Assembly (NCBI GenBank): GCA_964017185.1
Contig: OZ024874.1
Location: forward strand, 51,860,856 to 51,924,855
Direction of reading: 5' to 3'
Source: Rugalucina vietnamica
Lineage: Eukaryota; Mollusca; Bivalvia; Lucinida; Lucinidae
DNA: 64,000 nucleotides
How positions within the stretch are numbered: position 1 is the first letter of the stretch; each line of letters begins with the position of its first letter. Of the stretch, positions 1,469 through 62,957 are shown one piece after another. The translations under genes were made by a program, and so were the position numbers. The notes below the pieces were generated by a model that was given only the letters and a program-made list of their open reading frames with translations, had not been told where the DNA came from and ran no database searches.

Positions 1469-3302
1469 ATGGTTCTTCTAAGGATAGGACCACTGCTTTG
1501 TTTGGTAGTGTTATGCCAGGCGTGGGATAAACGCTTGTTCCTCTTCGGAAGCAGTGCGCCGTCGTTAGGTAAGATTTTTAATTCATTTTCAAATATAAAG
1601 ATTCAAAATTTATTCCATATTCAATCCAAAACAAACATGATTACATTACACAAATCCAAACACACACAGCTTGTTTTATTTTCGATTTTCCCTGTCAAAC
1701 CTATGGCACAAACATATGTCACTTTAACTCTGGCTTTGGCGTGAAATCACTAAACTAGTTGTTGTGTGGTCCTTAACCATGTTTTTGAGTGGTCATTAAC
1801 CCATTTTTGACCAATGGACTTTGCCATCTTTATCATTTGGAAGAGTCCACTTTAAGTTTTAGGGGCGTTATGAGTAATTTTGATTTTTTTTGTTTCATTT
1901 TTCGATGAAAATTCGCAAACTGAATTCTGCGGGGTCACATCTGGTGTTATGCTGTATGGCAGACTTATATGATGAGTTAACCTAAAACTTCTTGATACTG
2001 AATGTCGTGTCTGTCGATAAGATTGCATCAGGCCAGAAGAATTATTCATCAGGATAACTTTTCCGTGTAATGTATATTCTCTTGCATCCCACTTCAACAA
2101 GCTATGGTGTGATTAAAATAACGACAGAAAATGAAAATTTAACTGTTGCAGCTCTAAGAAAATGCATGGGTGTGTTTAATGTGATCAAAAAATACGACTT
2201 GTCCCTATTTCACAATGGGAAGACACCATTGGTATGTTTCTGGGCCCATTTAATCTAAGTGTGTATTGAGTAGGATGGCATCCCGAATATACACGTGTTT
2301 GTTTTATGCTATTACCGTAGTCTTTTTCAGAGAAGTACAATGTGGACAAAACCCAAATTTCTATTTCTGGAATTTCTTCTGGTGCTGCCATGGCAACGCA
2401 GATGCACGTGATCTATTCCAGTCATTTTATGGGCGTTGGACTCATTGCAGGAGGTATATTAAATAGACATCACATTTCACCTATAAGTTGTTTTTAAGGT
2501 TTTGACAACTGCAAATACATTTTTTTAATATTGTTGTTGATGAAACATAAAGATATTTTAAGCAAAGAGAAGATGCATCCACTTTTTACCAGCAAAACAA
2601 AGATGTTCCTCTTAATATCAACGATTGCGACCAATTAAACAAGTGCTACAGTGCATGCCCAATTAGCGACTGTGTGTAATTACAAATTTATCTGATCTGC
2701 AGTACCATTCGCGTGCACAGAAGGATTCGGTATCGCCACCGCCGTGACCCAGTGCATGCAGGCCCCGTCTCTTGTCAGCTCCACAGTTCTACAAACCACA
2801 ACAGACGCAGGAGCCAAGTTACACAATATCGACGCCACTTCAAACATGCTAAATGATAAAATATACATCTTTGATGGAAAGGCGGATTCAACTGTCAATC
2901 CAGGTAATTCATTTGTTCACTCACGTCAGGCTTATTTATAGGTTTCGAAAGCATTGAATTAAATGTATGCACTGTGCTATCATTTTACCGATTCCGATAG
3001 CGTAATGGTTAGAGCGTCCGCTTCGGGAGCGGGAGGTCGTGGGTTCGATCCCGGGCCGGGTCATACCAAAGACTTTAAAAATGGTACCAGTGGCTACAGT
3101 GCTTGGCGCTCAGCATTATAAGGCAAGCACTGGCTTCTTTTCTCCCAAAACAAAATATAGCATCACTAACATCGCATGTCTAATATGAAAAAGTCCGAAT
3201 AATAACAAAAAAGTCCGAAAATAATGGTTCTCTGTGTTCACTAGAGAACCGTATGGAAGACTGGCAGTTGTGCTAAATACGTTATCCTCTATAAATATAG
3301 AG

Positions 3303-3342
<40 letters not shown>

Positions 3343-4577
3343 CAACGGATGAAAATTTAAAAAAAAATGGTAAGGAGTAAATTTACATGTACATGGCGAT
3401 TTCAGTCATGTCTTGCTGCTAAGAATGTGTATCACAAGTTGTTTCATTACGAAGACTTGCCCATGAGATATGAAGAGATTTTATTTTCAGCTGCAAAAAT
3501 TGAAATTTCATCGGAAGAATTTTGATATGTTTAACATATTCACTCAAAACATACATGTTTTGGATTTAAAAAAAGGTATACTCCTAATTGGGGTATGAGG
3601 GGGGTATATATTTTACGGACATGTTTTCCTGATTTACTGTTAATAAGCATTTCCTTTTTTCATAGCAAGTGGACGAAAGATCAAAGATTTCTACCGCTAC
3701 TATGTTGCGAATGAAAACCAGCAGATAAAAACGGTTTTCAACATTAATGCTGAGCATGGACAGGTATGTGTTTTGGGATTATGAATTTTATCATTTGTAA
3801 GTTTGACATTTATTGTATGTAGACAAGAGCCTTTCTGGGAATCCTGTCTAAATCTTGAGTGGTATACGCATTATTCTGGCAATACTTTCAGGTATACATG
3901 TATGCATCATTTGACAGACGGTGTTTCGAGTTTATATCGTTTATGTTGTGAATGTCTGAGGATTTTCTAACTTATCTAAGTGAAGGCAATATTAAGTTGT
4001 CTCATTAAATACCTAGTAAAGAAAGTAACAAAATATTCTGATATATAGACTTCTAATCTCTTTCAGATAATCAAAACAATGTGACGTTTTGTTATTTATT
4101 TAACCGAATCATTTCGAAGCGAGTATAAATGTTTACCAGTTAAACGCTATTGTAATGTTGTTACTTTTCAGATAACAAACAACTTTGGGGCCCCTTGTGA
4201 TCAACACAATTCTAAAAACTTCATGAATAACTGCAATTACTCTGCTGCCTTTGATCTACTCAACTTCATATATGGCGGCAATTTAAAGGCAAGTTGGTTT
4301 TCTGTACACTTCTTGTACAATCACCAAATGGATATACTAAATATTTCGATCGTTTCATCGAATAGATCAAAATAATTATCTATGCGACACGAGAGCGCAA
4401 CTAATTTGTTGTAGTATACTGGAGTTTATGCATGGGTGATTCAACGAGTTAGCGTTTTTTCTGTGGTTATGATAATCAGTTTCTAGGGAGTGACCAGCTT
4501 CATACCAAAATTTGTAAAGATAAGATTTTTTTCTCAAATGATTTGCATTTCCCTTTATCACTTTTAAATCTTGAAAC

Positions 4578-4625
<48 letters not shown>

Positions 4626-7159
4626 CCACAATCATTTCTGTTGTCGTACCAAAAAGGCAGTTAAGTTCATACTAACTAAAGGCAGAATGTCCTACATCTG
4701 GAAACCGATGTTGAAAGCTGGCTTATCAACCGTTGTTTCGATCACTAAACGGTTGAACCAAGCCAGAAGAAAATCACGAAGACTACAAAACATTGTAACT
4801 TTTGTCTCTAATGTAGATAAACTCAGTTTGACATTTTGATCTGATTCACACCTGAGAAATGTAAAGATGGGATTCATTTCACAGAATATAAAATATGAAG
4901 TGACAGTAAATTGAATTAAAATTCTTGACGTACTTTAAGGCAAATAGATTCAAATATCTAAAATAGCAATTTATCTTAGTGTGCTGCTTTAACATGGCAC
5001 TAAATCGTTTGCGCTTGTAATGGCAAACTACCTCTTGTGATTAAAATTTTGTCACATTTACTATTTTAGGAACCCGCACCTGATGCACAGCAAACAGGAA
5101 CGGTAAATAATTATGTTTATTGTTTGTTAGTGTTCGGTAATTATATAGAATATATATAAGATAAGAACTCGTTCCGAGCATCAATCTTGTTTGTTTAAAT
5201 ATTTCAGTCGTTGTTTAATATTAGGTAAATCTAAATGGCGACTATGATATCAAGATATATATGCTCTTGTTAGGCGAGGAACATACTCTTTCTGTTTTGT
5301 TTTCATTTTTAATTTTGAATGATTTTCCTTAAGTCCCAATTAAATATTTCAACCTTCTAATGCAAAATATCAAGAATTCTATATTCGTGTGATTTTACAG
5401 TTTAGCAATAGCTTTTATTTTTTCCATTCAGCTGACGAAATTTGACCAGACCGACTTTTTCTATATTTCAACACCATCAATGTACAGTATGGATGATGAA
5501 GGGTATATCTATGTACCAAAATCTTGTGCCTCTGGAACACACAGCACAAGAAGTAAGAAGAAATAATCTGTGTTTATCTTCGTTTGAAACAGTATGTTGT
5601 GTTGTGTTGTGTTGTGTTGTGCTGTGCTGTGCTGTGCTGTGCTATGCTATGCTATGCTATGCTATGCTATGCTATGGTATGTCACGTCACGTTACGTCAC
5701 GTCAGGTTACGCTTTGTTACGTTATATTATGCTATGTTATGTTATGTCACGTTACGTCAGGTCACGTTACGTTACGGTACGCTTTGTTATGTTATGTTAT
5801 GTTATGTTATGTTATGTTATGTTATGTTATGTTATGTTATGTTATGTTATGTTATGTTATGTTATGTTATGTTATGTTGTGTTGTGTTGTGTTGTGTTGT
5901 GTTGTGTTGTGTTGTGTTGTGTTGTGTTGTGTTGTGTTGTGTTGTGTTGTGTTGTGTTGTGTTGTGTTGTGTTGTACGCCGATTAAAATTTGTCATTGCG
6001 TTCATTGATGTGACGATCAGATAATAATTTCGGGCAGCTACGGCAAAGAAGTTTCTGAAGTTGTTCAAACGAATGTTGTCCTTCTAAAATGAAACAGCGA
6101 TCAATTAGTACCAAATATGATATTCGTTTTCAATATTTTGCTGTATTTACATGTACATCATAGACTTGCACGATGCTTTATCTGATTTCAGAATGTAAAC
6201 TTCACTTAGCTATGCATGGCTGTAAAATGGGACAGTAAGTATTCTAATATCCTGACTGATGCTACAAGCATGTGACCACATTATCTTTAAGATAGAAAGA
6301 TTTGATGCTTTTGAATATTAATGGGTTCCCATGGTAATCAGTAATCAAACTGAAAGAAAACAAACTTTTCAAGTCAACAAAAATCATGTACAATATTTGT
6401 ACATGTTTGTATTACTTTTGGATTCCTCCCATGACAGAGAAACACTGTTTAACTAGTTGTAATTTTGCTCTTCCAGAAAGTATATTGGTGACACGTACGT
6501 ACGACATGGGGGTTATAACGAGGTAGCTGATCTCAACGACATTATTATCCTCTACCCACAAGCCATTAAGTCACTGGTGCATGGCAACCCTAACGGATGC
6601 TGGGATTGGTGGGGATATACTGGCTTAACATTTGGTACGTTTATTTTTCTTTTAATCCGTTTGGTGTTTGTATTTTTTTGGTTCTTATGCCAAGTAAACA
6701 TACTGTAAGCCGAGTGAGCAGCTATTCCCCAATAGGCGGCCACTCAGTAACCTTCACTAGTAATGCCTTTTAAATGCATTACTGTTGAAATAACCTTAAC
6801 TCGTTTAAGACTAACTTTCTTTTTTGCGGGACATAGGCGAACAGAATAGCCCCAGTATGATGTGACGCCGCAAAACGCTGCGTTACTGTTTGCTTAGAAA
6901 AATCTAAAATCACACCTGATCTCCCCAAAAAATGAAAGTTGATTCACCCAAATGATAATGATGGAAAAGTCCATTCGTCATATTGTGTTAATCTGATATA
7001 CCTACATACGGTCCCCCATCTAACCATCTACACAGAAGTTCTTTCTTTCAGCTGCTACTGTTTTTGTATGTCGTCATGTGTTATTCTGTATTTACAGCCA
7101 CCAACTCCGGATTTCAGCCAATAGCCCTCAAAAGGATGGTTGACAAAGTAACTGGATGA
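1469..7159 (+). CDS. Secreted PHB-depolymerase-type esterase, gene 1 of 4
   Basis: Ten exons: 1469-1568, 2331-2453, 2703-2903, 3666-3763, 4172-4288, 5070-5102, 5432-5552, 6192-6234, 6477-6634, 7098-7159 (TGA). They join to 351 codons with no internal stop. Residues 1-18 are a hydrophobic signal peptide ending CQA, followed by WDKRLFLFGSS. The lipase box is GISSG (residues 47-51, Ser49), the candidate acid is Asp136 in KADSTV, and the candidate base is His172 in AEHGQ. The MHGC loop (Cys275) and GCWDWWGYTG (from Cys320) follow. In the Penicillium funiculosum enzyme the order Ser-Asp-His-Cys is the same and the Cys backbone helps form the oxyanion hole (family knowledge). The likely reaction is extracellular hydrolysis of poly-3-hydroxybutyrate or short polyesters; the substrate is inferred. 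Intron 5 starts with GC (4289). Intron 3 holds a SINE and intron 7 a large pentamer array. A likely polyadenylation signal ATTAAA is at 7190-7195. Confidence 0.93.
1796..1925 (-). mobile_element. Truncated TTAA-ended MITE
   Basis: Reverse-strand partial copy of the element that is full length at 34264-34491. It begins at a TTAA and reads, in reverse complement, the shared segment of cccTaaa-aTgaaagTGGACTC followed by CCAAATGATAA. It breaks off near 1925 inside intron 1 of esterase gene 1. Confidence 0.6.
2990..3341 (+). mobile_element. tRNA-derived SINE with (ATT)n tail
   Basis: Bases 2990-3063 look like a tRNA: an A-box-like TAGCGTAATGGTTAGAGCG, an anticodon arm CCGC-TTCGGGA-GCGG with anticodon CGG (proline), and a B-box-like GGGTTCGATCCC. 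The acceptor stem pairs poorly (GATTCCG against CCGGGTC). An unrelated body with the pattern TACAGTGCTTGGCGCTCAGC follows, and the copy ends in about 12 ATT units (3303-3341). This makes it a SINE, not a working tRNA gene. It sits in intron 3 of esterase gene 1. Confidence 0.85.
3445..3640 (+). mobile_element. Degenerate copy of the CATTACGAAAACTTGCCC MITE
   Basis: Shares the order of blocks seen in the intact copy at 20446-20690: ATTACGAAGACTTGCCCATG, a TTGAAATT run, CTCAAAACATA, then GGGGTATGAGGGGGTATA and ACGGACATGTTTTCCTGA. The central palindrome is nearly lost. It lies in intron 3 of esterase gene 1. Confidence 0.65.
4579..4620. repeat. Poly(T) run of about 42 bases
   Basis: An uninterrupted T run inside intron 5 of esterase gene 1. 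It could be the poly(A) tail of a reverse-strand retrocopy, but the sequence beside it (4621-4900) resembles no element I recognise. Confidence 0.85.
5593..5975. repeat. Evolving pentanucleotide satellite in intron 7 of gene 1
   Basis: About 75 pentamer units in ordered blocks: TGTGT/GTTGT, then GCTGT, then GCTAT, a mixed zone with GTCAC and GTTAC (5680-5785), then about 19 GTTAT units and about 20 GTTGT units. It begins about 40 bases after exon 7 (ends 5552). All three forward frames stay open through it, giving several false cysteine-rich ORFs. The real transcript splices from 5552 to 6192 over it. Confidence 0.92.
6680..6755 (-). mobile_element. Penelope-like 3' tail fragment
   Basis: The reverse complement matches the conserved 3' untranslated part of the elements at 9301 and 30696, with the pattern CTGAGTGGCCGCCTATTGGG and then GCTGCTCACTCGGCTTAC. 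Only this part is clear; the outer end toward 6645 is degenerate. It lies in intron 9 of esterase gene 1, shortly after exon 9. Confidence 0.65.
6796..6991 (+). mobile_element. TTAA-ended MITE with internal GC-rich hairpin
   Basis: Starts TTAACTCGTTTAAG and ends GTCATATTGTGTTAA. The internal segment TGTGACGCCGC-aaaa-CGCTGCG is a worn hairpin that is better preserved at 18200 and 34264. TTAA at both ends suggests a piggyBac-like target site (inference). It lies in intron 9 of gene 1. Confidence 0.7.
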
Positions 7160-7245
7160 TACATTTGGTGATATTCTACGAAACTGACAATTAAAACGTA
7201 AAAAAGAAGAAATCATTTGTCTTCATTTTTGTAGTTATGCAACTG

Positions 7246-8085
7246 CAGTCCAACCTGTCTTAAGCAAGCCCTGTATTAAGCAAGCACCTGTCTTAAGCAA
7301 GCGCTTTCATTTCCCCCCAATTGATTTTACATGTAAATGAACCTCTATTAAGCAAGCACCTGTCTTATGTGGCCAGAGGCCACTAGTTTCTGTCCCAATT
7401 TTGGCTTTAAGCAGCCACCTATTTCATCAATTACATAAAAAAGAAATATTTTGACATGGATATTCAAACTCTGCCAGGTGTCAAAATTGTCTTCACACCT
7501 TCCAGGTGCCATAATTCATTGTTTATTGTCTCAAAAGATAATCCTAGACAACTTGACTGGGAGTACTTAGTGACAATTACTGACAGAAAAATAAGAGAAG
7601 TAACACTCTGCACTCATGAATAACACCTTTTCATAAAGATTTTATCTTTACTGTGTCAGTTCCATCCCTTTATTTTTTACTTTTCAGCCAAAGCAAACAG
7701 TCTAAACCTGTTGATTTTAGTAGGATATAAATTTTCTTATTCAATAATATTTACTGAGGAAAAAACGATTTCTCAAAAAGGACAAATTATTCATGATTTG
7801 TAACTCTTGGAACATTTTTTACAATGCGCTACTACTTTTAATAGAGGAAAATCATACCAATAGCTAATCAAGATGATTGTGCTTCTTGGCTGTACTTGTT
7901 TGCATTTCCATATGCAGTTTTAATTTTGTAGACAGTACAGCACTATTAGTTGTATTTCTAGCTAACATGGTTTGGTTTGGACGCTTACCCTAGTGTCAAA
8001 ACATAACCTCTATTAAGCAAGCACCTTGCTTGAGCAAGCAATTTTAGTGTTTCCCTTGGCCGCTTGCTTAAGACAGGTTGGACTG
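7246..8085. mobile_element. 840-bp DNA transposon with perfect 24-bp terminal inverted repeats
   Basis: Left end 7246-7269 begins CAGTCCAACCTGTCTTAAGC and the right end 8062-8085 is its exact reverse complement over 24 bases. Subterminal copies of TTAAGCAAGCACCTGTC recur near 7270, 7290, 7345 and 8010. The right flank is TA while the left is TG, so the target duplication is unclear; the CAGT...AACCT ends resemble pogo/Tigger-like elements (inference). No transposase reading frame is visible, so it is non-autonomous. It fills most of the gap between esterase genes 1 and 2. Confidence 0.85.
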
Positions 8086-8488: not shown

Positions 8489-11400
8489 ATGAGCAAAATG
8501 TATCTCGCCGTATTCATTTGCTCTATGACGTTAACCCAGGTTAATAGTGAAAGATTACGGTTCGACAGTAGCAGCGTCCCTCCATTAGGTAAGTCCTTAA
8601 ACTATAACCATTGATTATTAAGACAATTTAACACTTTTAACTTCGGACTATCAAAATAATCAAGTACAGGCAATGTGATCACTTAACAGGTTTAAAGGTC
8701 ACTACTGAAGTGCCGCATTTAGCCCTTCACTCGAGGGATCACATATTGATTTTCCATTCATTAACATTCGCTAGGTCTGGAGGGGAGTGTTGCAAACCGA
8801 GGACACAATGTCATCCCAATGTTTTCAACACTACCGGGGGACCTTGCAAATGTTAATAGTAATTTTATTGTTCAAACTGACAAAGGAATTTGTACAATGG
8901 AAAACTAATTCACTTATAATATCAAAGAACCTTATCTGATCATATTTCTTCTTATTAAGAAAGGTTCCTTAGTGTGAACATAGCCACGTGATTATGAAAT
9001 TCGCATATTGTATATCATTAGTATATCACTAGTATTTTCACATATTTTTATTTCCTCAGAGAGATACAATGTGGACAAGACACAGATCTCAGTCTCTGGA
9101 ATATCTTCTGGTGCTGCCATGGCGACGCAAATGCACGTTATCTATTCCAGTCATTTAATGGGAGTTGGAATGATAGCCGGATGTAAGTATGAAATTTTAT
9201 ACCTAAATTTGTTTGCCCAATGAAGTACTTGCACCTGAACCTATTAGAACTGCTAATATCTTTCATTACTTAACGTTTTCTTTGAAAGAATAAGATTATT
9301 TCAGAATGTGTGCGACGCCTTATCCTATCTCCTTGATAATATTTATATTAGATTTGGAGACCAAGTTATACAGACAAATTGTTGGAATTCCGATGGGTAC
9401 AAATTGCGCACCTCTCGTAGCTGATTTATTTTTATACTGCTACGAAAGAGCTTTCATGGATTCTCTTAACCATGATAATCAAGCTGATGTTATCGAGGCT
9501 TTTAATTCCACATCTAGGTAACTCGATGACCTTTTGAACATTGACAACCCTTATTTTGAAGGTATGGTCAATCAAATTTATCCACCTGAACTTCAGTTGA
9601 ACAAAGCTAATATCTCAGATACAGAAGCCTCCTTTTTAGATCTACATCTTTCTGTTGCAAATGGATTTGTTTCTTCTAAAATTTATGATAAGCGCGATGA
9701 CTTTGATTTTGATATAGTAAATTTTCCTTTTTTGGATGGTGACGTTCCTCGTCGTGCTTCTTATGGTGTATACATTTCGCAACTTATTAGGTTTGCTAGA
9801 GTCTGCAATCATGTTACAGACTTCAACGCTCGAAATAAATTTTTAACGGCAAAACTTCTCCAACAGGGCTATCGGTATCATAAACTTCGAAAAACCTTTT
9901 CTAAATTTTATCGTAGACACTATGAATTGATTTCCAAATATAATGTTGGGTTGAAGACGCTTTTAAGTGAGGGCCTTTCGGAACCTGAATTTTATGGTGA
10001 CTTGGTTTACAAATCTAAGAAACTTAAAGGAATAAATGATTTTTCTTTTCAGTTCAGAAAAATCATAACACGTTACAGACGTATAGGTTATAACTTGAAT
10101 GTGATGCGACAGTCTGCATGCTTAGTTTTTAACCCAATCATGGTTGATAACTACGCTGCCTTCTTTAATTGCACGCCGGTGGGTCGGGCGTCAGACTCTA
10201 TGATGGCCCCGACTTAAAGCTATTCATTTTAGTTGGTTGGGGCCGGAGCTTCTTGTCTGTTGCTTGGCCCACCGGGATCCAACTGGTGTTTTTCTTTTGC
10301 TCCGGAGTTAGTAGGTTATTCGGCGCCCAGGGATCTCCATCGTCGGGCGGCTTACTCAATCTGTGAGTCCTGGTTTTTGATTCATCAGGATGTTTATCAT
10401 GATTTATTTGTTTGTTCTTGATGATTCATTGACTAGTTAGAGATTCACAACGAGGACCGAAGAACTAACTAAATGTTATGAACCACTGCAGAAGCTGAGG
10501 GTGAGGTTAGGTACCTGTAAAACCGGTTTAAGCCCGCCAGTAACTTTGTGTTACTGATCGTTCCAAGTCGATACTTCTGTGGTGGTTCATTTTGTTTTAT
10601 GTCTTGGTATTTAAAATTTTTTGTGCTGTTGGCGCCTTATGTATGTTTTCATATTTTTAGTTAAGGTAACTGAGTGGCCACCTATTGGGGAAATAGCTGC
10701 TGATTCGGCTTACGATATGTTTCATGGTATAAGTACCTGATTGTTAGTTTGGTTTTTTTTCCACCTCGGTTTTGGAGTGGGAATCTTTTTTCTGATTGCG
10801 CCTTTTCCTGATCTTTGCCTACTTGTACCTTTCAGATAGCCAACCATGTTAGCACCCTCTATCCACAATATTGCTTCGTTTGGGAATACCTCTCTTTCAT
10901 TTCCATCTTAATTAGAAATGACAAATGGCGAAACTGCTTCAAGCATATATGAATGTAGATTTTTTTTCAATATCATGCGTTTCTGCGGAAGATGTCGACA
11001 CATCGACAGCTATGATAATCTATCAACACGACCTTTCACTTGTATTTTCTTACGGATGCATAAGAAATGTACAGTACTTCCCTTTGAGTTTAAAGTTGAC
11101 AATTGGGCACAAAGCCTGGCTATTCTTTTTTTTTTTCAGTACCGTATGCTTGTGCTGAGGACGGCGGTGCCGTAACTGCTGTAACAATATGCCAACATGA
11201 TCCCTCTCTGGTACTTCCATCTGAGTTAGAACTGGCAACTGATGAAGCCGCTGAAGCTCTACAAATAGACCCCGTATCTAATATGAAGAATGATAAAGTA
11301 TACATATTCAACGGAAAGGCGGACACCATTGTGGACCCAGGTGATGTAACAAGTTGAATTAAATATAGAAGCCAAAAATTTCATTTTATGCACATTGAAA

Positions 11401-14400
11401 CAAAACTTGGGCTTTATTATATTGTGTTATTTATGAATTTTATTTTGTAGTTATCGTATATTTTATCTTTTGTAAAATATGTAGATATGGTAATGACAAT
11501 GTTGCTGCAAAAACAAACAGTACAATTAACGGTTGTAATTTGTTGCACTTTATTCAGCAAATGGTGTCTTTATTTTAGAAAGGGTAACTGTGGTTTTACA
11601 AACAAAGTCTTATCTTTTTAATTACATTTATAGATTCGAGACTTTATTCCAGGCGTTGGTCCTGTTATAAAAGAATATTACGGACATTATGTTGCACATC
11701 CAAAGAAACAAATAAAGACTGTTTTCAACTTCTCAGCGGAGCATGGTCATGTAAGTTTATTTTCTGGAATTATACATAAACTATTTCTTCTGGACACAGA
11801 CATATTAAGAAAACAAGTCGCAACAGCGTCGACTTCACGTCTTTCAAACAGAGCGGCAATGCTTCAAAGTTCATGTAACACGTTAGGTTGTTCACAAAAA
11901 TAGTACATGTACATGTGTACACAAATTTAAGTCATTACGAAGCCTTTTGAAAATAAAGTACCATTAAGGCATATTCCTACTTTTTTGAAAAAAAAAAAAA
12001 AAAAGATTCAAAACAACTATTTCTATATTATCTTAACGCCTGTTTGTTGTATACACTAACATCATATTTAGCCAACAAACAACTACGGAGCGCCCTGTAG
12101 CCAATTGAACAAGAAAGACTTTATCAACAACTGCAACTACTCTGCTGCCTTTGATCTTCTTAACTTCATTTATGGAGGAAATCTTACAGTAAGAAAAGTT
12201 TAAAATTACAGTAAGATCTTTTAGAAGCATGAGTCAAGGACAAGAAGAGTCTTTGTTTTATTTCTTGTATTGGAAAGCAAAATATGCCTATGTGTCTCTA
12301 AAAAGCGCAAGTGACGTAAAATATAATACCTACGAATCTGGGGACACCCCACCATCGGATTTGGTATACGTATGCTGATCGTATATATATATATCTATCT
12401 GACAGATTGTCGTCTGATGGTGTCGCGATGTCACTTAATTTACCGGAAATCATACATAAAAAGAAATTTCAGAAGAGTGATGGCCTCGAAAGCAATGTTT
12501 TCAGTTTAACCATAAATACTGCTTGAAATTAATTGTTGTAGACCTAAATTACAGAGTGTTATATCAGACTTTATGATTTAACTTTTTCAGAAGCCTACAT
12601 CTGATGCTAAGCAAGCAGGACAGGTACATACATGAAAAAGATGAAAATTTCTTCGTTAGAAAAATTTCAACCGCGAAGCATAACATACTTTTCTCGAGCC
12701 CTGATTTCGTCGCCGTACAACGTCAGCAATGGGTGAATTAAAATAAATGTTATAATAATTGATTCAATAATATTGATTCTTTTAAAAGCTATTACTTATA
12801 ATTTATATATATATAATCAAAGGGGAGTAACCCAATTAATTAATATATATTTCTTTTTATGTTTCTACAATTTATTATCTAGAACTTTGTAGAAGAATGT
12901 CATTGATTATTTTTATCACTGTTATATAATTTAGAAGTATAGAAAATTCTATGAGCACTTTGTGGATAATTCCAGATGAAAATGGAGTGAGTGTTTTTTT
13001 TTACCATAAGTTAAAAATATATTTAGGACTATGTATACTGAGATCTCGAAGGGTCTAGTGGACTCTCGTTTAGTCTTGATGGTCGTTGCGGCCTTGAATT
13101 CTCTCTGGAGAATTCTAAATTCTCTTTGGAGAATTTAAAAGAACTTTCGTTTAGTTCGTTTCTTTTCTAGAGAAAAGTTTATTATATCATTCTCTAGAAA
13201 CCTGGAGAATTTCCTTAGATGTATAAATATAGGTCCCAATTCAGTCGTAGGTATTCAGAAATTTTAAGTGGTTTAAAGTATATAATTTTGGTTGTTTCAC
13301 TAGTGTTTTGGATTAGAATAAAAGTGTGGATTAAAATATACATGTGCTCATATTCTGGTTACTGGATTGTGGACTTACATTTGAGGGACAAGGACTTATT
13401 TGACATTAACTTTGTAAGTTATTTATTTATTTATTTACTTATCTGTTTGTTTGTTTGTATGTATTTGCAGCATTTATTTGTTTGATTAAATATTGTTAAG
13501 TTTAAATTACTTGGTTGTTTTTCGCTGTACCTGTCTAGTTACGCTAGGTCGTAACAATAAAATTCACTTGTTTCATTCAGTAAATCTAAATAAATTTAAC
13601 GACATGGCATGATTCTACGATTTTTACTGTTATGTTTTTCACCTAGTGTTTAAACAATGCTTAATGCTCGAGCCATGACTAAATTCCTGTTCGAACCATT
13701 TCTGTTGTCGACGAAAACTTAACATGTGATAATTTTTTCTTTCTCCTTAACACAGATGCAGAAATTTGACCAGATGGAGTTCTTTGTTCCTACCCCGTCT
13801 GACTATGGTATCGACGACATGGGATTCATTTATGTTCCCGTGGCTTGCTTGAATGGAACAAAAAGTAAGAAATATTAACGTTACTCAGTTTGTCTGGACA
13901 ACCTCACGGTTTTGTAGCAGCAGAACGACATGCTTGTAAACTGCAGTTAGTGATCTCTTTTCCGGCTGAAGTATTTTAAATAATTTCTATAATTCTTATT
14001 ATTGTTAAACTAATATTCTGTTTTTCTTACGTCGCTCTTGCATTTATCAGAAACTTAGAAGAGTGTTTATGTTATCCTTTCCTTTTTAGAATGTAAGCTC
14101 CATATAGCTTTTCATGGCTGTGAAATGGGCAGGTAAGTCTACCACAACGTACCATCTTGTCTCTCAGAAGATTTATGATTGGCATTTGTGCTATATTCAT
14201 CCCGTTACTTCTTTGTATTACTTCTGTTTACATACTGAAACTGTGGATGTATTAAATGTTGTTGACAACGATTTTTCCAGATTCTTTTCATTATTTACCG
14301 TTCTCAAATTGTAGCATGCTACACACGTGTCTGTTTTGATATCTTTTTTCTTTTACTTCATTTTTAAACAGTCACATTGTTATTATCTTTAATTGCAGTT

Positions 14401-15034
14401 GACTTAAAAATAGGAATATGGAAGGCCCGGGGAAAGCCGCGACAATAAAAAAAACCGTAGCCCTGTTTACAACAGAACCTTTCCGCTTTATTTTTTTTAA
14501 TTATTATTTTTATTTATTTTATTTTATTTTTTTTTTTTTCAGAAAATATATCAACGATGACTACATTCGCCATGGAGGGTATAATGAAGTTGCCGACCTC
14601 AACGACATCATAATTCTATATCCACAAGCTATCAAAACCGAGGTCCCTGTGAACCCAGAAGGTTGCTGGGATTGGTGGGGCTACACTGGGGTGACATATG
14701 GCAAGTAAAATACTGCATACGCGTTTTTGCAAGTCAAACAAATGGCAGGGTTAGGGGATTTAAATATTAGAGAGGAATACCCCCAAAAAAAAGAATAAAT
14801 GAAGGCATGTATGGATTTTTTTACACTCGTAAATGGAAAATTCATACCGATTCACGTTTAGTATAATATATTAAATTGCATAAAATATTGGACAATGTTG
14901 AAGATATCGTTTGGTTAAAGGGTCCTTTATTTTGATTTGATGATTAAAGCATTTTGTATTTGACTATTTTAGCAATAAAGGAGGGATTTCAGCCAGCTGG
15001 TATTATGAGCATGATTGACAGAATCACTGGATAA
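8489..15034 (+). CDS. Secreted PHB-depolymerase-type esterase, gene 2 of 4
   Basis: Ten exons: 8489-8588, 9060-9182, 11140-11340, 11653-11750, 12072-12188, 12591-12623, 13756-13864, 14090-14132, 14543-14700, 14973-15034 (TAA), giving 347 codons. I chose ATG 8489 over the in-frame ATG at 8414 because it makes exon 1 exactly 100 nt, as in genes 1 and 3, and places a signal peptide (MSKMYLAVFICSM...) at the start. Active-site candidates are Ser49 in GISSG, Asp136 in KADTIV, His172 in AEHGH and the FHGC loop at Cys271, then GCWDWWGYTG. Exon 2 is almost identical in protein to that of gene 1, so these two appear to be the closest pair. Exon 7 is 12 nt shorter than in gene 1. Intron 9 begins with GC (14701). 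Intron 2 contains a broken Penelope-like element. AATAAA occurs at 15061-15066 and 15230-15235. Confidence 0.93.
8760..8856. mobile_element. Short inverted-repeat element (ATTAACATTCGC ends)
   Basis: Begins near TTCCATTCATTAACATTCGC and ends GGACCTTGCAAATGTTAAT, the near reverse complement. The same element lies at 29026-29096 in another esterase intron. No coding capacity. It lies in intron 1 of gene 2. Confidence 0.65.
9301..10833 (+). mobile_element. 5'-truncated Penelope-like retroelement, copy 1
   Basis: Homology to the longer copy at 30696-32924 starts abruptly at TCAGAATGTGTG, about half-way through the reverse transcriptase, and runs to the shared 3' end CCTACTTGTACCTTT. The coding part ends near 10217. 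The 3' part holds the conserved block GTAAAACCGGTTTAAGCCC and the CTGAGTGGCCACCTATTGGG segment also found alone elsewhere in this window. It sits in intron 2 of esterase gene 2 in the same direction as the gene. 5' truncation is what target-primed reverse transcription is expected to leave. Confidence 0.88.
9304..10217 (+). pseudogene. Reverse transcriptase remnant (Penelope-like)
   Basis: The 3' half of a reverse transcriptase. It retains motif B (GIPMGTNCAPLVADL) and the downstream thumb-like region with FLDLHLSVANG and RRHYELISKYNVGLKTL. Three lesions are visible: truncation at the 5' end, one extra base near 9357 (GGAGACC where copy 2 has GGGACC), and TAA at 9519-9521 exactly where the Tyr codon of the YLDD catalytic motif should be. 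It cannot make an active enzyme. Confidence 0.85.
13080..13220. repeat. Cluster of short GAGAATT inverted repeats
   Basis: Several alternating TTCTC and GAGAA blocks (TCTGGAGAATTC, TCTTTGGAGAATTT, TCTAGAGAAAAG, TCTCTAGAAACC) in intron 6 of gene 2. This could form small hairpins. No function can be assigned. The remaining intron sequence, 12624-13755, shows nothing else I recognise. Confidence 0.4.
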
Positions 15035-22956: not shown

Positions 22957-25900
22957 ATGATAAAGCTTGGACTTCTTTGTTGCTTGTTGGTGTCATGTTT
23001 AGCGAAAGAGAAGCGGATACTTTTGTTTGGCGATAGTGGTTCTAGTAGTACCGGTTTGTCTGGTGGGTCCAGTAATGGACTGACGGGTGGTACCGGGCTT
23101 CTAGGGGGTAGCGGGCTCATGAGCAGCCTCCCAGGGCTAAGCAGCGGGAGTGGTGGTTTCTTCCTCGGGAGCTATACCAACTTGTTACAACAAACCACCA
23201 AGTACTGGACCGATTTGATGTCCAAGCTTCTACATGGTGGGAGTACACTGCCGGGAAGTCTCCCGGGACTGTCCGGACTACCCGGTCTTGGCGGGAGCGG
23301 GTCATCCAGCGGCTCTCTTCCAACACAGGCAACAGCTCTACGTAAGAAATATTCATTATCAATATTAATGATAATGATTATAAATTAAAACTGAGTTCCA
23401 TTAAGAGCAGCGAACATATTAATGAGAAAAGGGATGAGTCATTCCGCGGTTTCGGCTAGTTAAACCTTGTAAGTGACACTTTAGATTTGGCAATTTGGTG
23501 CCAAAGGGAATTGCTGTAATTCAACAACTTCCAACTGGATAGTCGATACAAAGACTAGTATTGTCCAAATGGGACCAAATACATTAAACGTTGGTTTGCA
23601 AATGAATCCAAACCTATAATAGGGACATAATAACATTTTTCATTTCTCAGAATATGAAAAGACTAAAAGAAAAATATAAGTTGACTATGAATGATGTACG
23701 GCGGGACTTTGTATTGACGTTTTTCTGACATTTTCAAATTTTATCATGCCATAGAGGACATTGTCATGAAGAAAAAGCTTATCAGACACTGTTGTACTTA
23801 ATCAGGTTATGTTGTTTTGCTGAAGTCAATAAGAAGTTGCTCATAAAAAAGAAGTATCATTTTAACAAATTAATTAATTCTCTGTGATTCTAAGTGCATC
23901 TACTTTTCAAAATGTAAAATTATATGTGACTATGTTCTTGAAAAAGGCCACTAGATGGCTGAAACGTTGAAAAACCTTGGAAAACAGCGGATTTTGTACT
24001 TAATCAGTACATGCACTCCGATTCTATAAGTGCGTACTACTTCTATCAGTGTCCGCGCACTGGTTTCTATCATCAAAGAGTACGAGAATACTACATATTT
24101 GGTGCGCACTGATTCTGTTATTAAAGAGGGAAAACTGTAAAACCGGTTTAAGCCCGCCAGTAACTGTGTTACTGATCGTTCAAAGGCGATACTTCTGTGG
24201 TGGTTCTTTTTGTTTTATGTCTTGGTGTTTAAAAATTTTTGTGCTGTTGGCTCCTTACGTATGTTTTCATATTTTTAGTTAAGTTTAGGTAACTGAGTGG
24301 CCACCTATTGGGAAAATAGCTGCTCATTCGGCTTACGATATGTTTTCATGGTATAAGTACCTGATTGTTAATTTAGTTTTTTCCCACCTCGGTTTTTGGA
24401 GTGGGAATCTTTTTCTGATTGCGCCTTTTCCTGATCTTTGCCTACTTGTACTTTTTTCAATCATAGTGCGGTGTATACTGAATATATTAAGCGCATGAGC
24501 ACTTGATTCTATTATAAAAGCGCCCGCGAGTACTGAATCTATCCTTAACTATATTGTGTGTACGCCGATTCAATTAGAATTATAACGTATGTGCACTGAT
24601 TCTAACATTATTTTTTATATTCTAGATAAGTATAACATCGACAAGTCCCAGATTTCTGTGTCTGGCTTGTCCGCGGGAGCGGCATTCGCCACCCAGTTCC
24701 ATGTCATCTACTCTAGTGACATCATGGGGGCAGGGATCATTGCCGGTTGTGAGTATTGGTTTATCAAAGTGCTTGAGACACCATCGTATTTGTTGACTTC
24801 TTCACCGAAATTCTTGTAAAACTCGTTTTAGTTCGCAGGCCAGGCTTATCTTTAATATGTAGATCTCTGTTCAAAAGAAATGCAACAGTGATTAAGCTTC
24901 AATCATACAAAGGTATTTCTGGATCACTTTGTAATCATCTACGCCTTGAATTATTTGTGATGCTGCATACAGACATGGACAGGTATTTCTGAGTGAAAAT
25001 TTGGTATCAGTTTAGATCTTGTTTGGTAACTTTGAACCTTCTTTTCAGTACCATTCTATTGCACAAATGGTGGTGGTGTGATGACAGCTTTGACAACATG
25101 TATGCAACAAGCAGGGGAAGACCTGAATAGTATTTTTAGCAAGACGGATCAAGGTGCTACAAGTGGCCAAATTGATCCCACGTCCAACTTGGCGAATGAC
25201 AAAGTTTACGTATTTGCTGGTACTGCAGACACAACGGTAGCACCAGGTATTAATTTAAATAATAATCACGATTTTAATTGAAACATAAGGACAACACGTC
25301 TGTGTCATGTATACTCTCTACCATAATAAAAGAGGTATACGTGGGTGTAGTTTTTCTTATTTTAGCTTCAAATCATAGATTGTGGATACTCATGTATAAA
25401 CAGTTGATGTTATGGATAAAAATAATACATGTACAAATGTCATTTTTTTACTACTTTTTAATTTCATTGTTACCAGTTTATTGCATACCTGTTCACAGTA
25501 GGAAATAGAATTGTTTATTTTAAAGGGTCAGAAAACAGAGGTTGTATTTAAATTATGTATAGGAGGGATTTGCAGTGGCTACAGGAGACATCACCAGTTG
25601 TAGCAAATATGTCTTTTAAACTGTTACGCGCCTTGTTGTTTTTCAATAAGCCAATGGTCCAAAGATTGTGAGTTTCTATCAGCACTATGGTGTAACCAGT
25701 ACCAAATCAGTCTTTAACATGGCAGCAGCACATGGACAGGTAAACGCAAAACAAATCATTAGATATATATCGGTAATTTTCAAAAAACATAACAAATTAT
25801 GTTCTAACTTGCAAATTATAAGCACCTGAAGTTCTGAACGCAACACTAATAAAACGGAAAATAGCTGCTCATTCGTCTTACGATATGTTTTCATGGTATA

Positions 25901-28900
25901 AGTACCTGATTGTTAATTTAATTTTTCCCCCTCGAATCTTTGTCTGATTGCGCCTCTTCCTGATCTTTGCCTACTTGTACCTTTTTATCATGAAAATGTA
26001 GAAATCCATTTTAAATAACACCATAAACTCGGACATTTTGTATGACAAAATTGACAAATATAAGAAGATATCTGATTTGGAATATATTCTATTACTTCAT
26101 CTCCGTTTACTCTTTAGCCCACTGACAACTTTGGTGGCCCTTGTGGGACAATGAATTCCCAAAACTACATCAACAACTGTGGTTACAATGCAGCTTATGA
26201 CTTGCTCAACCATATCTATGGTGGACATCTTCAAGTAAATCAGACTTAACACTGTTTTTGTTATTCTTATCTTTAGAATGTTTTGCATCTAGCATAATAT
26301 GCCACAGCAAAATCAATACTTTTATTTTGGAAAAAAAAAAAAAAGATTTGCTATAAACATGTAAATTAAAGTGTCTTGAGCGTGTATTTTATTGTGTTGA
26401 ATAATGGTATTAGTAGATGAATTCATGTATATATTTGTTCAAGCTGGTGAACAATTTATTTTTGTAATTTGTCATTTGGTATATGCTCTAGCCATTTATA
26501 CTTGTATTTTATTATGTGCAAAGCCATCTTTATTAGCTCACCTGAGCCGAAGGCTCACAAGGTGAGCTTATAGGATGGCCATGATCCGGCGTCCGTCCGT
26601 CCGTCCGTCGTCTGTCGTCCGTCGTCCGTCCGTCGTCCGTCGTCCACAATTTCAAAGATCTTCTTCTCTGAAACCGCTTGGCCGATCTAGTTGAAATTTT
26701 ATGTGGAGCCTCCTTGGGTAGTGGCATTTCAAGTTTGATCGCGAAATCCAGGTCACATGACCAACATGGCCGCCACGCCCATATACGGTAAAAACCACTC
26801 AAAAATCTTCTTCTCCAGAACCGGTGGGCCAATTTCCACGAAACTTGGTATGTAGCATCAAGGACCTCAGCCCATCATAGTTTGATAAAATGATGACCCT
26901 TGGATGACCTTGACCTATTTTACGGCAAGGTCAAATTTGGAAACATAGGCTTTTACATAGGAAAAAGTGAAAACTATGGATTTTTTGAAAACTATTGCAG
27001 CCTGAGGCCTGAAAAGTGGTAGATGCAAACAACTAATGGAGTAGATGAAGGTATGTGATTAATATAGGTCAAGGTCATCTCTTGACCTTGGCCAGTCTGT
27101 TGTCCATACACACTTTACAAAGATCTTCTTCTCTGAAACTGCGCGGCCAATCAAAGTAAAATTTTATGTGGAGCATCCTTGGGTAGGGGAGACGAAAGTT
27201 TGATCGCAAAATCCAGGTCACATGACCAAGATGGCCGCCACGCCCATATATGGTAAAAACCACTCAAAAATCTTCTTCTCCAGAACCGGTGGGCCGATTT
27301 CCACGAAACTTGGTATGTAGCATTTAGGACCTCAGCCCATCATAGTTTGATAAAATGATGACCCTTGGATGACCTTGACCTATTTTACGGCAAGGTCAAA
27401 TTTGGAAACATAGGCTTTTACATAGGAAAAAGTGAAAACTATGGATTTTTTGAAAACTATTGCAGCCTGAGGCCTGAAAAGTGGTAGATGCAAACAACTC
27501 ATGGAGTAGATGAAGGTATGTGATTAATATAGGTCAAGGTCATCTCTTGACCTTGGCCAGTCTGTTGTCCATACACACTTTACAAAGATCTTCTTCTCTG
27601 AAACTGCGCGGCCAATCAAAGTGAAATTTTATGTGGAGCATCCATGGGTAGGGGAGACGAAAGTTTGATCGCGAAATCCAGGTCACATGACCAAGATGGC
27701 CGCCACGCCCATATATGGTAAAAACCACTCAAAAATCTTCTTCTCCAGAACCCGCTGGCCGATTTCCACGAAACTTGGTATGTAGCATTTAGGACCTCAG
27801 CCCATCATAGTTTGATAAAATGATGACCCTTGGATGACCTTGACCTATTTTACGGCAAGGTCAAATTTGGAAACATAGTCTTTTACATAGGAAAAAGTGA
27901 AAACTATGGAATTTTTTGAAAACTGTTGCAGCCTGAGGCCTGAAATGTGGTAGATGCAAACAACTAATGGAGTAGATGAAGGTATGTGATTAATATAGGT
28001 CAAGGTCATCTCTTGACCTTGGCCAGTCTGTTGTCCATACACACTTTACAAAGATCTTCTTCTCTGAAACTGCTTGGCAAATCAAAGTGAAATTTTATGT
28101 GGAGCATCCATGGGTAGGGGAGACGAAAGTTTGATCGCGAAATCCAGGTCACATGACCAAGATGGCTGCCACGCCCATATATGATAAAAACCTTTCAAAA
28201 ATCTTCTTCTCCAGAACCGGCAGGCCAATTTTCATGAAACTTGGTATGTAGCATTTGGGACTCCAGCCCATCATAGTTGTTGAAATGATGACCCTATGAT
28301 GACCTTGACCTATTTTACGGCAAGGTCAATTTTGGAAACATAGGCTTTCACATGGGAAAAGGCGAAAACAAACTGTTGCAGCCTGAGACCTGAAAGTTGC
28401 TAGATGCAGACAACTAATGGTGTCAATGAAGGTAAGTAATTAATGAAGGCCAAGGTCATGTCTTGACCTTGGCCCAAGGTCATTTAAATATCAAAATTAA
28501 AATTATGGTTTTCTCAGAAATCACTGGGTTTGGAAACTATTGCAGCCTGAGACCTGAAACTTTGCAGATGCAGACAACTTATGAAGTCAATAAAGGTGTG
28601 AGAGTATTCAAGGTCAAGGTCATTTCATTATGACTTAATACTCCAAGATCAGGCTTCAGGTGAGCGTTCTCAGGACCAATGGTCCTCTGGTTTTAAACTT
28701 ATCTGAGTCTCCTATAATTCTGTAAAGAATGGGTCGATGTATTTTAAACTGCCTATATGTATGTCACAGTGTATGTATCTGTATATGATATGTCGACATG
28801 AGACTTTTAAATAAACGATTAACCTTATATACATGCGATAGACTATGTTTCTTGTTTACGACACTCTACATGCATCACAATTGTCTTATATAATTTCTAC

Positions 28901-29551
28901 GAGTTATAATACAATATATCTTTTACAGAAGCCAAGTTCTGGAGCCACTGCTACAGGGGAGGTAGGAACACACTTGATAGTTTTCACCAATGCCTTTCGT
29001 AGAGGGATCCAACATGATTTATCTTGCCATTAACATTCGCTAGGACCAGAGGTTTTCGACACTATCTGAGGGACCTTGCGAATGTTAATGAATGGCAAAA
29101 TTATGTTTGACAGCTATTGTTGCATAAGTGCTGCATAAGCAAAGAAATTACGACACACTTTATTTTATAGCCTCGTCACATTTTCATACACTAAAAATAT
29201 TCAGTTTTATATGCTCGTACCGGGCGGAGTTCGGATACACAAAATTATGGAATTTCTTTAATCTGAATATCTGACTACGAGTATTCAGTCCGCAAGTTTT
29301 AAATCTGCGACAATAAAATTACACTCAATTACAGATTATAGCATTTGACCAAAGTCAGTACATAGCCTCTCCAGCTTCCAATGGCATGGATGAACTTGGG
29401 TATCTATATGTACCAACAGCATGTAAAGATGGAACTACTCGTAAGTTTACACATTTTGATGTTTAATTGTCCTGTCTTCACTCTTGTATCTTATATCTTA
29501 CATTGCACAAAATTTGAAAAGACCTATCTTCCTTTCTCTTACACAGAGAGC

Positions 29552-29591
<40 letters not shown>

Positions 29592-30619
29592 GTTATAAAT
29601 TGTTAGCAGTCACTCATATCTTTACAAGTGATTATCTTTTTCAGAATGCAAACTCCACATAGCTTTCCATGGTTGCAAACAATATAGGTGAGGACTTTAT
29701 TCTATTCAAAAACTGATAAAAATTTGAGAGCAGTTAATGTTGATAAACACAGCGACTTTACCTCTTTCATTTGAATGAGTCAACCCGAACTATCTAAGTA
29801 AACAGAGATAATCTTCATTGTAGTTCTACCTAAGCTGTCCAATTTGCCTTTGAAACTGTTTGTAGTATGCAATGCCCCCTTCCCCAACCCCTATCCCCGA
29901 CATATAATCAGGTAAGTGTAATAAAATTACACTTCCCTGATAAAATGTGTAACATACAGGAAAGCAATCGGTGATGCCTACATCAAACACGCGGGATATA
30001 ACGAAGTTGCAGACCTGAACAACATCATTATATTGTACCCACAAACCCAACCAAGTATGATGAACGGAAACCCTAACGGCTGCTTTGACTGGTGGGGATA
30101 TGCAGGGAATAACTTTGGTAAGCTCCGCATTGGTTCCAAGTTGAATAATCGAACACGTGACAATTCACACACACTGTCTTGTTTCATCAGAAAAAGACTG
30201 AACATCTTGAATTTATAATTTCGGTATACTATATAAATTATATCACAATGGAAAGTATTTGCAAGTGTACGTAATAACAATTGCACTATTCCTGTCAACA
30301 ATTCCACAGCTTGATCCACAGTTTTATGTATACTTTTGGCTGAAGCAAGCGGAAATTTTCTGAAAATAAAAAAAAAAACAATCTACGTACTCCACATCAA
30401 GTAATCAACCTTAGTTCCATTTTTTTCATCGTGGTTGTTTTGTTTCCGGTTTCTGTAGGCTCTGGGGGATCGCTACTTTATAAAAAAAATCATTTTGTTC
30501 TTTAGGGAATCCGTCCATGTATTTTATGATCTTTTATAAGGTTTACTTTCATTGCAGCGACAAAACAAGGAATTCAGTCGGCTGGTGTGAAGAAGATGAT
30601 GGACACATTGACTGGCTAG
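22957..30619 (+). CDS. Secreted PHB-depolymerase-type esterase with Gly/Ser-rich N-terminal domain, gene 4 of 4
   Basis: Ten exons: 22957-23341, 24626-24748, 25049-25246, 25651-25739, 26118-26234, 28929-28961, 29335-29440, 29645-29687, 29960-30117, 30558-30619 (TAG), giving 437 codons. Exon 1 is 385 nt instead of 100. After the signal peptide ([16 protein letters not shown]) and [12 protein letters not shown] it encodes about 95 residues rich in Gly, Ser and Leu ([23 protein letters not shown]) around an amphipathic stretch near residues 68-88. Active-site candidates are Ser144 in GLSAG, Asp230 in TADTTV, His263 in AAHGQ and the FHGC loop at Cys361. The late aromatic motif is [10 protein letters not shown], with Phe for the first Trp. 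Exons 3 and 4 are 3 and 9 nt shorter than in the paralogues. Intron 5 carries a pearl/Helentron-like element. AATAAA is at 30647-30652. It is the most divergent of the four. Confidence 0.92.
24135..24457 (+). mobile_element. Penelope-like 3' tail, tail-only copy
   Basis: Begins CTGTAAAACCGGTTTAAGCC and ends CCTACTTGTACTTTTTT. It matches the non-coding end of the longer copies over about 320 bases with no reverse transcriptase part. It lies in intron 1 of esterase gene 4, same direction. Confidence 0.88.
25856..25986 (+). mobile_element. Penelope-like 3' tail, short copy
   Basis: Starts GGAAAATAGCTGCTCATTCG and ends CCTACTTGTACCTTTTT. About the last 130 bases of the element only. It lies in intron 4 of esterase gene 4. 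Confidence 0.82.
26534..28690 (+). mobile_element. Pearl/Helentron-like element, copy 1
   Basis: Starts with the hairpin TAGCTCACCTGAGCCGAAGG...AAGGTGAGCTTA, then a (CGTCCGTC)n stretch. Four tandem units of about 450-480 bases follow, each containing GGTCACATGACC, AAGATGGCCGCC and GATGACCTTGACCTATTTTA. It ends CAGGTGAGCG, the hairpin GGACCAATGGTCC and CTCTGG. A 3' hairpin followed by CTGG fits the CTRR rule of Helitron ends, and tandem cores are typical of bivalve pearl elements (family knowledge; assignment inferred). It lies in intron 5 of esterase gene 4. Confidence 0.75.
29026..29096. mobile_element. Short inverted-repeat element (ATTAACATTCGC ends)
   Basis: The left end TTGCCATTAACATTCGC and the right end GCGAATGTTAATGAATGGCAA are inverted repeats. 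Same family as 8760-8856. It lies in intron 6 of gene 4. Confidence 0.7.
29555..29586. repeat. (GA)n microsatellite
   Basis: About 16 GA units in intron 7 of gene 4, some 60 bases before the exon 8 acceptor. Confidence 0.9.

Positions 30620-42327: not shown

Positions 42328-62957
<20,630 letters not shown>

What the first reader, a model, noticed from the sequence alone, without database searches (positions are those of the whole stretch)
1469..30619. Four-gene tandem array of animal PHB-depolymerase-type esterases
Four complete head-to-tail genes each encode a signal peptide plus a catalytic domain with GxSxG, (A/N)D(S/T)xV, A(E/A)HG, HGC and GC(W/F)DWWGY blocks. These are hallmarks of bacterial and fungal poly(3-hydroxybutyrate) depolymerases. 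Ten-exon structures with conserved phases show these are native animal genes, not bacterial contamination. PHB is a bacterial storage polymer, so an expanded secreted family suggests digestion of bacterial polyester in a gut or symbiotic tissue. I recall reports of PHA depolymerases in some marine animals but cannot verify them here.
Basis: partly seen in the sequence, partly recalled or inferred. Interest (0 to 1): 0.88.

Follow-up and report, generated by a model that had tools for sequence, protein, structure and literature searches.

The report
Animal gene array for bioplastic-digesting enzymes
An animal genome carries a row of intron-bearing genes for secreted-type enzymes of the kind that bacteria and fungi use to digest the bacterial storage polyester PHB, which suggests, but does not prove, that the animal can feed on that polymer.

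Summary
The array is real. Window 1469-30619 holds four intact head-to-tail genes (g1-g4) with nine coding exons each (not ten) and identical intron phases. A fifth intact gene (g0) and a lone incomplete exon lie just upstream of the window. Whole-genome searches found no other convincing copy.

All five proteins pass the curated cut-off of NCBIfam NF050059, extracellular type 2 short-chain PHA depolymerase (304-336 bits against 280). The best solved relative is the fungal PHB depolymerase 2d80 (E 1.8e-54). PF10503 matches only in part. The triad, the HGC oxyanion site and all eight aligned cysteines are kept in 5 of 5.

They are bare catalytic domains without a substrate-binding domain, and share a lost loop and a Trp-to-Val change seen in 0 of 80 sampled bacterial relatives. 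No close bacterial donor appeared (at most 47% identity).

Digestion of bacterial PHA is the best explanation; activity, tissue and substrate are untested. No PHA synthase was detected in the host. Ten paper searches listed no report of such animal genes.

The parts
1469..7159 (+). g1: nine-exon gene, 340 aa, type 2 scl-PHA depolymerase catalytic domain with leader peptide. Exons 1469-1568, 2331-2453, 2703-2903, 3666-3763, 4172-4288 (GC donor), 5432-5552, 6192-6234, 6477-6634, 7098-7159
   Evidence: NF050059 319.2 bits; 2d80 E 9.3e-40
8489..15034 (+). g2: nine-exon gene, 336 aa. Exons 8489-8588, 9060-9182, 11140-11340, 11653-11750, 12072-12188, 13756-13864, 14090-14132, 14543-14700 (GC donor), 14973-15034
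   Evidence: NF050059 315.3 bits
16020..21064 (+). g3: nine-exon gene, 338 aa. Exons 16020-16119, 16663-16785, 17392-17592, 17890-17987, 18449-18568, 19305-19416, 19862-19904, 20251-20408, 21003-21064
   Evidence: NF050059 311.6 bits. Exon 1 was picked from the candidates listed: the one with a hydrophobic leader and the same length (100 bases) and phase as exon 1 of g1 and g2
22957..30619 (+). g4: nine-exon gene, 426 aa, with about 100 extra Gly/Ser/Leu-rich residues in exon 1. Exons 22957-23341, 24626-24748, 25049-25246, 25651-25739, 26118-26234, 29335-29440, 29645-29687, 29960-30117, 30558-30619
   Evidence: NF050059 336.3 bits
2331..2453 (+). g1 exon 2: nucleophile elbow GISSG; serine 49 aligns with Ser39 of 2d80
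2703..2903 (+). g1 exon 3: catalytic aspartate region (GKADSTV), Asp136 aligns with Asp121 of 2d80
3666..3763 (+). g1 exon 4: catalytic histidine region (AEHG), His172 aligns with His155 of 2d80
6192..6234 (+). g1 exon 7: HGC oxyanion-hole block, C-terminal to the triad (type 2 order)

Best explanation
The array encodes secreted-type, single-domain serine hydrolases of the type 2 extracellular short-chain PHA depolymerase family, held in the chromosome of an animal (probably a bivalve mollusc, partly by recall) and expanded by tandem duplication. SHOWN: gene structures, family membership by profile, intact catalytic triad and oxyanion block, all eight cysteines of the fungal enzyme aligned, no separate substrate-binding domain, one cluster in the genome. 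INFERRED: the leader sends the enzyme into the gut lumen or a lysosome-like compartment; the serine attacks the 3-hydroxybutyrate ester bonds of PHB granules freed from digested or symbiotic bacteria; the (R)-3-hydroxybutyrate and short oligomers are taken up and burned through the host's ketone-body pathway. Without a binding domain the enzymes should favour amorphous native granules or soluble oligomers over crystalline film.
For: NF050059 passed by 5 of 5 proteins (g1 319.2, g2 315.3, g3 311.6, g4 336.3, g0 303.6 bits; cut-off 280). Fungal PHB depolymerase 2d80 is the best PDB match over nearly its whole chain; 2d81, which has Ala for Ser at the aligned nucleophile, is second. Triad, HGC C-terminal to the triad, and eight Cys in 5 of 5, GxSxG with a hydrophobic x1 residue (I in g0, g1, g2; V in g3; L in g4); these fit the type 2 description in PMC2666664 (passages read). 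Nine-exon structure with conserved phases. Young pair g0/g1 under purifying selection: dN/dS about 0.33 (YN00) or 0.24 (NG86). No PhaC_N match in the host genome at E up to 1 (the same search rang in 1 of 14 control genomes), so a long polymer would come from outside. Four collinear matches to the SCOT-alpha family on C5 suggest a route for acetoacetate (none reaches the family cut-off, as single exons hardly can).
Against: No activity, expression or localisation data. Animal proteins differ from the fungal enzyme by a deleted loop (2d80 196-204) and V for W270 in 5 of 5; the effect on substrate choice is unknown. They have no substrate-binding domain, although PMC2666664 calls the Paucimonas lemoignei native-granule enzyme the only validated extracellular scl depolymerase without one; against that, the 318-residue 2d80 chain aligns over residues 2-313 and leaves no room for such a domain either. 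Identity to 2d80 is only 35-38%. The exon-wise PhaC_N search can miss a gene split by many introns. Leader peptides were judged by hydropathy, not by a trained predictor, and g2's is weak. Animals can attack PHA copolymer by other enzymes: mouse and chicken duodenum and pancreas extracts hydrolyse P(3HB-co-4HB) film, which the authors ascribe to lipases (PMC5059232, passages read).
Confidence: 0.6

Rival explanations
1. The proteins keep the fold and triad but have shifted to another ester substrate (plant or algal cell-wall esters, lipids, cutin-like polyesters or other dietary esters), so they are digestive esterases rather than PHA depolymerases.
For: Animal-specific loop loss and W270V in an otherwise conserved motif; the next PDB matches are a feruloyl esterase (8iy8) and an esterase of the PHB depolymerase family (8daj); tandem paralogues 52-63% identical leave room for divergence.
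Against: Scores are far better for type 2 PHA depolymerases (304-336 bits) than for the type 1 or esterase_phb models (86-102 and 46-69 bits, 5 of 5 below their cut-offs). The type 2 motif order is kept in full, with a hydrophobic x1 residue that, PMC2666664 suggests, might tell PHA depolymerases from lipases and esterases.
Confidence: 0.25
2. The enzymes act in immunity or symbiont control: secreted in haemolymph or gill, they break down PHB granules of lysed or captured bacteria, and the released 3-hydroxybutyrate acts on microbes.
For: Secreted architecture and tandem expansion are common in immune gene sets (general knowledge). A chemosynthetic symbiont of a marine nematode regulates PHA synthesis and degradation genes (PMC8269255, passages read), so animal symbionts with PHA exist.
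Against: No expression data; nothing in the sequence points to immunity; the host's symbionts, if any, are unknown.
Confidence: 0.1
3. The sequences are bacterial contamination or a very recent bacterial transfer.
For: The family is best known from bacteria and fungi; 334 stretches in the prokaryote genome collection encode relatives.
Against: Eight introns per gene with conserved phases, a 72-Mb contig, repeats and retroelements in the introns, no identity above 47% to the best 80 of those 334, and animal proteins forming one clade with support 100/100.
Confidence: 0.01

Closest known systems
PHB depolymerase of Penicillium funiculosum (PDB 2d80, 2d81)
   Same: Collinear single catalytic domain; positions S39, D121, H155, C250 (numbers recalled) and all eight cysteines of the aligned segment shared by 5 of 5 animal proteins
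   Different: 35-38% identity; animals lack the 196-204 loop and have V for W270; their genes are split into nine coding exons and tandemly repeated
[quoted passage not shown] DED superfamily in PMC2666664)
   Same: Profile above cut-off in 5 of 5; leader, lipase box with hydrophobic x1, oxyanion block C-terminal to the triad
   Different: No linker or substrate-binding domain in the animal proteins; at most 47% identity to the best 80 bacterial rows; at most 38% in the 15 plasmid records listed of 35 that matched (with g2)
Type 1 dPHAscl depolymerases and PF10503/TIGR01840 esterases (for example feruloyl esterase 8iy8)
   Same: Same kind of Ser-Asp-His hydrolase; partial profile matches
   Different: Order of motifs differs; scores below the NF050058 and TIGR01840 cut-offs in 5 of 5
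Periplasmic PHA depolymerase of Rhodospirillum rubrum
   Same: Described as having a type 2-like catalytic domain (PMC2666664, passage read)
   Different: Not compared by sequence here
Vertebrate digestive activity on P(3HB-co-4HB) film (mouse, chicken; PMC5059232, passages read)
   Same: Animal extracts that hydrolyse a PHA copolymer
   Different: Ascribed by its authors to lipases; no gene of this family is named in the passages seen

Membership tests
Extracellular scl-PHA depolymerase, catalytic domain type 2 (NF050059) | Full-length profile match above the curated cut-off (280 bits) | tested here: met
   5 of 5: 319.2 (g1), 315.3 (g2), 311.6 (g3), 336.3 (g4), 303.6 (g0)
Extracellular scl-PHA depolymerase, catalytic domain type 2 (NF050059) | Ser-Asp-His triad with GxSxG and hydrophobic x1 | tested here: met
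   Triad in 5 of 5 animal and 80 of 80 sampled bacterial rows; x1 is I (g0, g1, g2), V (g3), L (g4); criterion from PMC2666664
Extracellular scl-PHA depolymerase, catalytic domain type 2 (NF050059) | Oxyanion-hole block C-terminal to the triad | tested here: met
   HGC in exon 7, after S (exon 2), D (exon 3) and H (exon 4), in the four window genes and in g0; aligned with C250 of 2d80
Extracellular scl-PHA depolymerase, catalytic domain type 2 (NF050059) | Signal peptide | tested here: inconclusive
   Hydrophobic N-termini by hydropathy; strong in g0, g1, g3, g4, weak in g2; no trained predictor was available
Extracellular scl-PHA depolymerase, catalytic domain type 2 (NF050059) | Hydrolysis of scl-PHA | not testable with these tools
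   Needs enzyme assay
Classical multi-domain dPHAscl depolymerase (catalytic domain + linker + substrate-binding domain) | Linker and substrate-binding domain beside the catalytic domain | tested here: not met
   The profile match ends 2-5 residues before the C-terminus in 5 of 5; no other Pfam family above its cut-off in g1, g2, g4 (g0 and g3 were not given to Pfam). Hence filed with the catalytic-domain family only, not with the multi-domain enzymes
Esterase_PHB (PF10503) | Pfam gathering score 23 bits | tested here: inconclusive
   g1 31.1 and g2 25.0 above, g4 21.7 below; best stretches of 46, 55 and 62 residues; g0 and g3 not run; exon-wise search of the own genome 0 matches at E 0.001
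[quoted passage not shown]
   86-102 bits in 5 of 5, motif order reversed

The most novel reading that the evidence does not exclude
An animal lineage took in a type 2 PHA depolymerase long ago and turned it into a dedicated digestive toolkit: at least five tandem enzymes without the bacterial binding domain, with a cleft reshaped by loop loss and W270V for amorphous native granules, and one paralogue (g4) that grew a new Gly/Ser/Leu-rich arm that could serve as an unrelated, home-made polymer-binding module.
Probability: 0.22. Interest if true: 0.75.

Novelty: new member of a known kind. Interest (0 to 1): 0.55.

Why it matters
PHB is a common bacterial carbon store and also a commercial bioplastic and an aquaculture feed additive (general knowledge). 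If animals make their own depolymerases, they could feed on this carbon directly rather than through gut microbes, which bears on symbiont digestion, sediment food webs, PHB feeding trials and the fate of PHA plastics in the sea. The array gives five genes on which that can be tested.

Tried and rejected
Rejected: bacterial contamination (introns, long contig). Rejected: PF10503 as the membership test; it covers only a fragment and gave 0 matches at E 0.001 in the own genome, while NF050059 found the cluster.

Tried without yield: viral-contig scan with g2 (2 candidate stretches, none confirmed). Ten paper searches for animal PHA depolymerases: none of the titles and abstract starts listed describes such an animal gene; three searches found nothing, and the listings showed only 20 of 1,568 and 15 of 1,519 matches. 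The nearest hit, PMC5059232, reports vertebrate extracts acting on a PHA copolymer, ascribed to lipases (passages). Papers opened: PMC2666664, PMC8269255 and PMC5059232, passages only.

Donor of the animal genes: the tree places the animals weakly (fork 81/89, drawn open) among gammaproteobacterial and Bdellovibrionota rows with long branches, so I claim no donor. In both trees the fungal enzyme sits elsewhere, with bacterial rows, but a joint animal-fungal clade is not rejected (AU p 0.434, quick tree of 86 rows). Only the best 80 of 334 relatives were kept by the tool, by likeness to the animal query, and I dropped 22 of the 86 rows, close relatives of kept ones chosen by eye, for the careful tree.

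dN/dS was tried for all ten pairs; only g0/g1 is usable, the others are saturated or failed. Species: the mitochondrial contig (30,680 bases, read with table 5; its last 680 bases were not held) and repeat ORFs that I recall from bivalve genomes suggest a bivalve; this rests largely on recall and no search here could confirm it.
Full report
WHAT IS THERE. The window is contig C6, 51860856-51924855, of a 1.09-Gb, 47-contig genome. Comparing plus-strand open frames of at least 18 residues from the first 33 kb with each other showed four repeats of the same series of exons. Reading the splice sites gave four complete genes: g1 1469-7159, g2 8489-15034, g3 16020-21064, g4 22957-30619, coding for 340, 336, 338 and 426 residues. 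Each has nine coding exons. Intron phases are 1,1,1,0,0,1,2,1 in all four, and 30 of 32 introns are GT-AG, the other two GC-AG. g1-g4 are 52-63% identical in protein.

THE ARRAY IS LARGER THAN THE WINDOW. A search of the whole genome with NF050059 (E up to 10) gave 25 matches, all on C6 between 51844528 and 51890974, the cluster and its upstream edge. A search with the g4 protein (E up to 10) gave 29 matches, 28 in the same cluster and one on C15 at E 0.975, which I take as noise. Upstream DNA (40 kb) holds a fifth gene, g0, with nine exons at -13011 to -1047 relative to window position 1, the same phases and eight GT-AG introns, 86% identical to g1. A lone, incomplete exon-2 copy lies near -16.3 kb; no partner exons of its own turned up in those 40 kb. 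The genome searches score exons one by one and only the best candidates, so very divergent copies could be missed.

WHAT FAMILY. All five proteins pass the curated cut-off of NF050059, extracellular catalytic domain type 2 scl-PHA depolymerase: 303.6, 319.2, 315.3, 311.6 and 336.3 bits for g0-g4 against 280. They fall below the cut-offs of the type 1 model and of TIGR01840 in 5 of 5. The best solved relative is the Penicillium funiculosum PHB depolymerase 2d80 (E 9.3e-40 with g1, 1.8e-54 with the profile of five). The residue numbers S39, D121, H155, C250 for 2d80 are recalled, but they fit: 2d81 shows Ala for Ser at exactly the aligned nucleophile. These positions, and all eight cysteines of the 2d80 segment, are the same in 5 of 5 animal proteins; the triad and C250 also in 80 of 80 sampled bacterial rows. 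The order lipase box, Asp, His, then HGC is the type 2 order as described in PMC2666664 (passages read).

WHAT IS DIFFERENT. The profile match ends 2-5 residues before the C-terminus, so there is no room there for the linker and substrate-binding domain of classical extracellular enzymes. Of the 80 bacterial rows, 28 run on for more than 400 residues from my estimated start of the domain and 38 stop within 350, so a short form is not unique to animals. All five animal proteins lack the loop that in 2d80 is residues 196-204: 0 of its 9 columns filled in each, against at least 7 of 9 in every one of the 80 bacterial rows. They have V where 79 of 80 bacterial rows and 2d80 have W270, the last having Y. 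Both counts depend on the alignment. g4 has about 100 extra residues, rich in Gly (26), Ser (23) and Leu (20). Its role is unknown.

ORIGIN. The best bacterial identity is 47% (g4 with L031). In a tree of 64 rows the animal proteins form one clade with support 100/100; its neighbours are gammaproteobacterial and Bdellovibrionota rows with long branches and weak support. The fungal row lies in a well-supported clade of mostly Oxalobacteraceae rows, away from the animals, yet an animal-fungal clade is not rejected (AU p 0.434). I infer that the gene is old in this lineage, since the paralogues are saturated at silent sites except for g0/g1. Its donor is unknown, and whether there was one gain or several is open. 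No annotated animal genomes could be searched here.

HOW IT MOST LIKELY WORKS. Shown: secreted-type, cysteine-rich catalytic domains with intact active-site residues, under purifying selection in the one young pair that can be measured (g0/g1 dN/dS about 0.24-0.33). Inferred: hydrolysis of PHB or its oligomers in the gut or a digestive vacuole, followed by use of 3-hydroxybutyrate through ketone-body enzymes. Two genome searches bear on this: no PhaC_N match, and four collinear matches to the SCOT-alpha family on C5. The lack of a binding domain suggests amorphous granules or oligomers rather than crystalline polymer; PMC2666664 notes that the extracellular enzyme it lists as lacking a binding domain degrades native granules. 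That is analogy, not proof, and the same sentence makes an active type 2 enzyme without that domain look unusual. Animal tissue can also attack PHA copolymer with other enzymes: duodenum and pancreas extracts of mouse and chicken do, ascribed to lipases (PMC5059232, passages read).

THE ANIMAL. C47 is a 30,680-base mitochondrial contig; its cox1 was found by PF00115. Read with table 5, the other protein genes that I recognised by eye (cox2, cox3, cob, atp6, nad1, nad2, nad4, nad4L, nad5) lie on the same strand; the remaining genes were not placed. Together with repeat ORFs that I recall from bivalve genomes this suggests a bivalve. The species was not identified.

VERDICT. My estimates: family membership about 0.97, activity on scl-PHA by at least one paralogue about 0.65, a digestive role about 0.5. 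The kind of enzyme is known; its place as an expanded animal array is unusual but untested. Ten searches of the held library listed no report of such animal genes; that library lacks most subscription papers.

Noticed in passing
L026, about 8931-9574 (window -1069 to -426), in the last exon of g0: A retroelement 3' end of about 645 bases, 97-98% identical to copies at window 10195-10832 and 31341-30697, sits inside the last coding exon of g0; the frame ends on the element's own stop, and sequence like the end of g1 resumes after it.
   Followed up: partly
window 9522-10217 (+), 31319-32921 (-): ORFs of one retroelement family, reverse-transcriptase-like by eye, without a Pfam match at E 0.01; one copy lies in intron 2 of g2. 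Penelope-like by recall only.
   Followed up: partly
window 26645-28474: Four copies of a 465-base tandem repeat fill much of g4's long intron 5.
   Followed up: no
window 5593-5973: A TGTTA-type short tandem repeat array in intron 6 of g1, just after exon 6.
   Followed up: no
window 52287-52592 (+): A B-box zinc finger ORF (PF00643, E 2.1e-13), probably an exon of a TRIM-like gene.
   Followed up: no
L111 3659-4948, L112 480-1564 and 6464-6883: The mitochondrial contig carries repeated, similar unassigned ORFs (a shared VKKVKDM..MPSG stretch) between standard genes.
   Followed up: no
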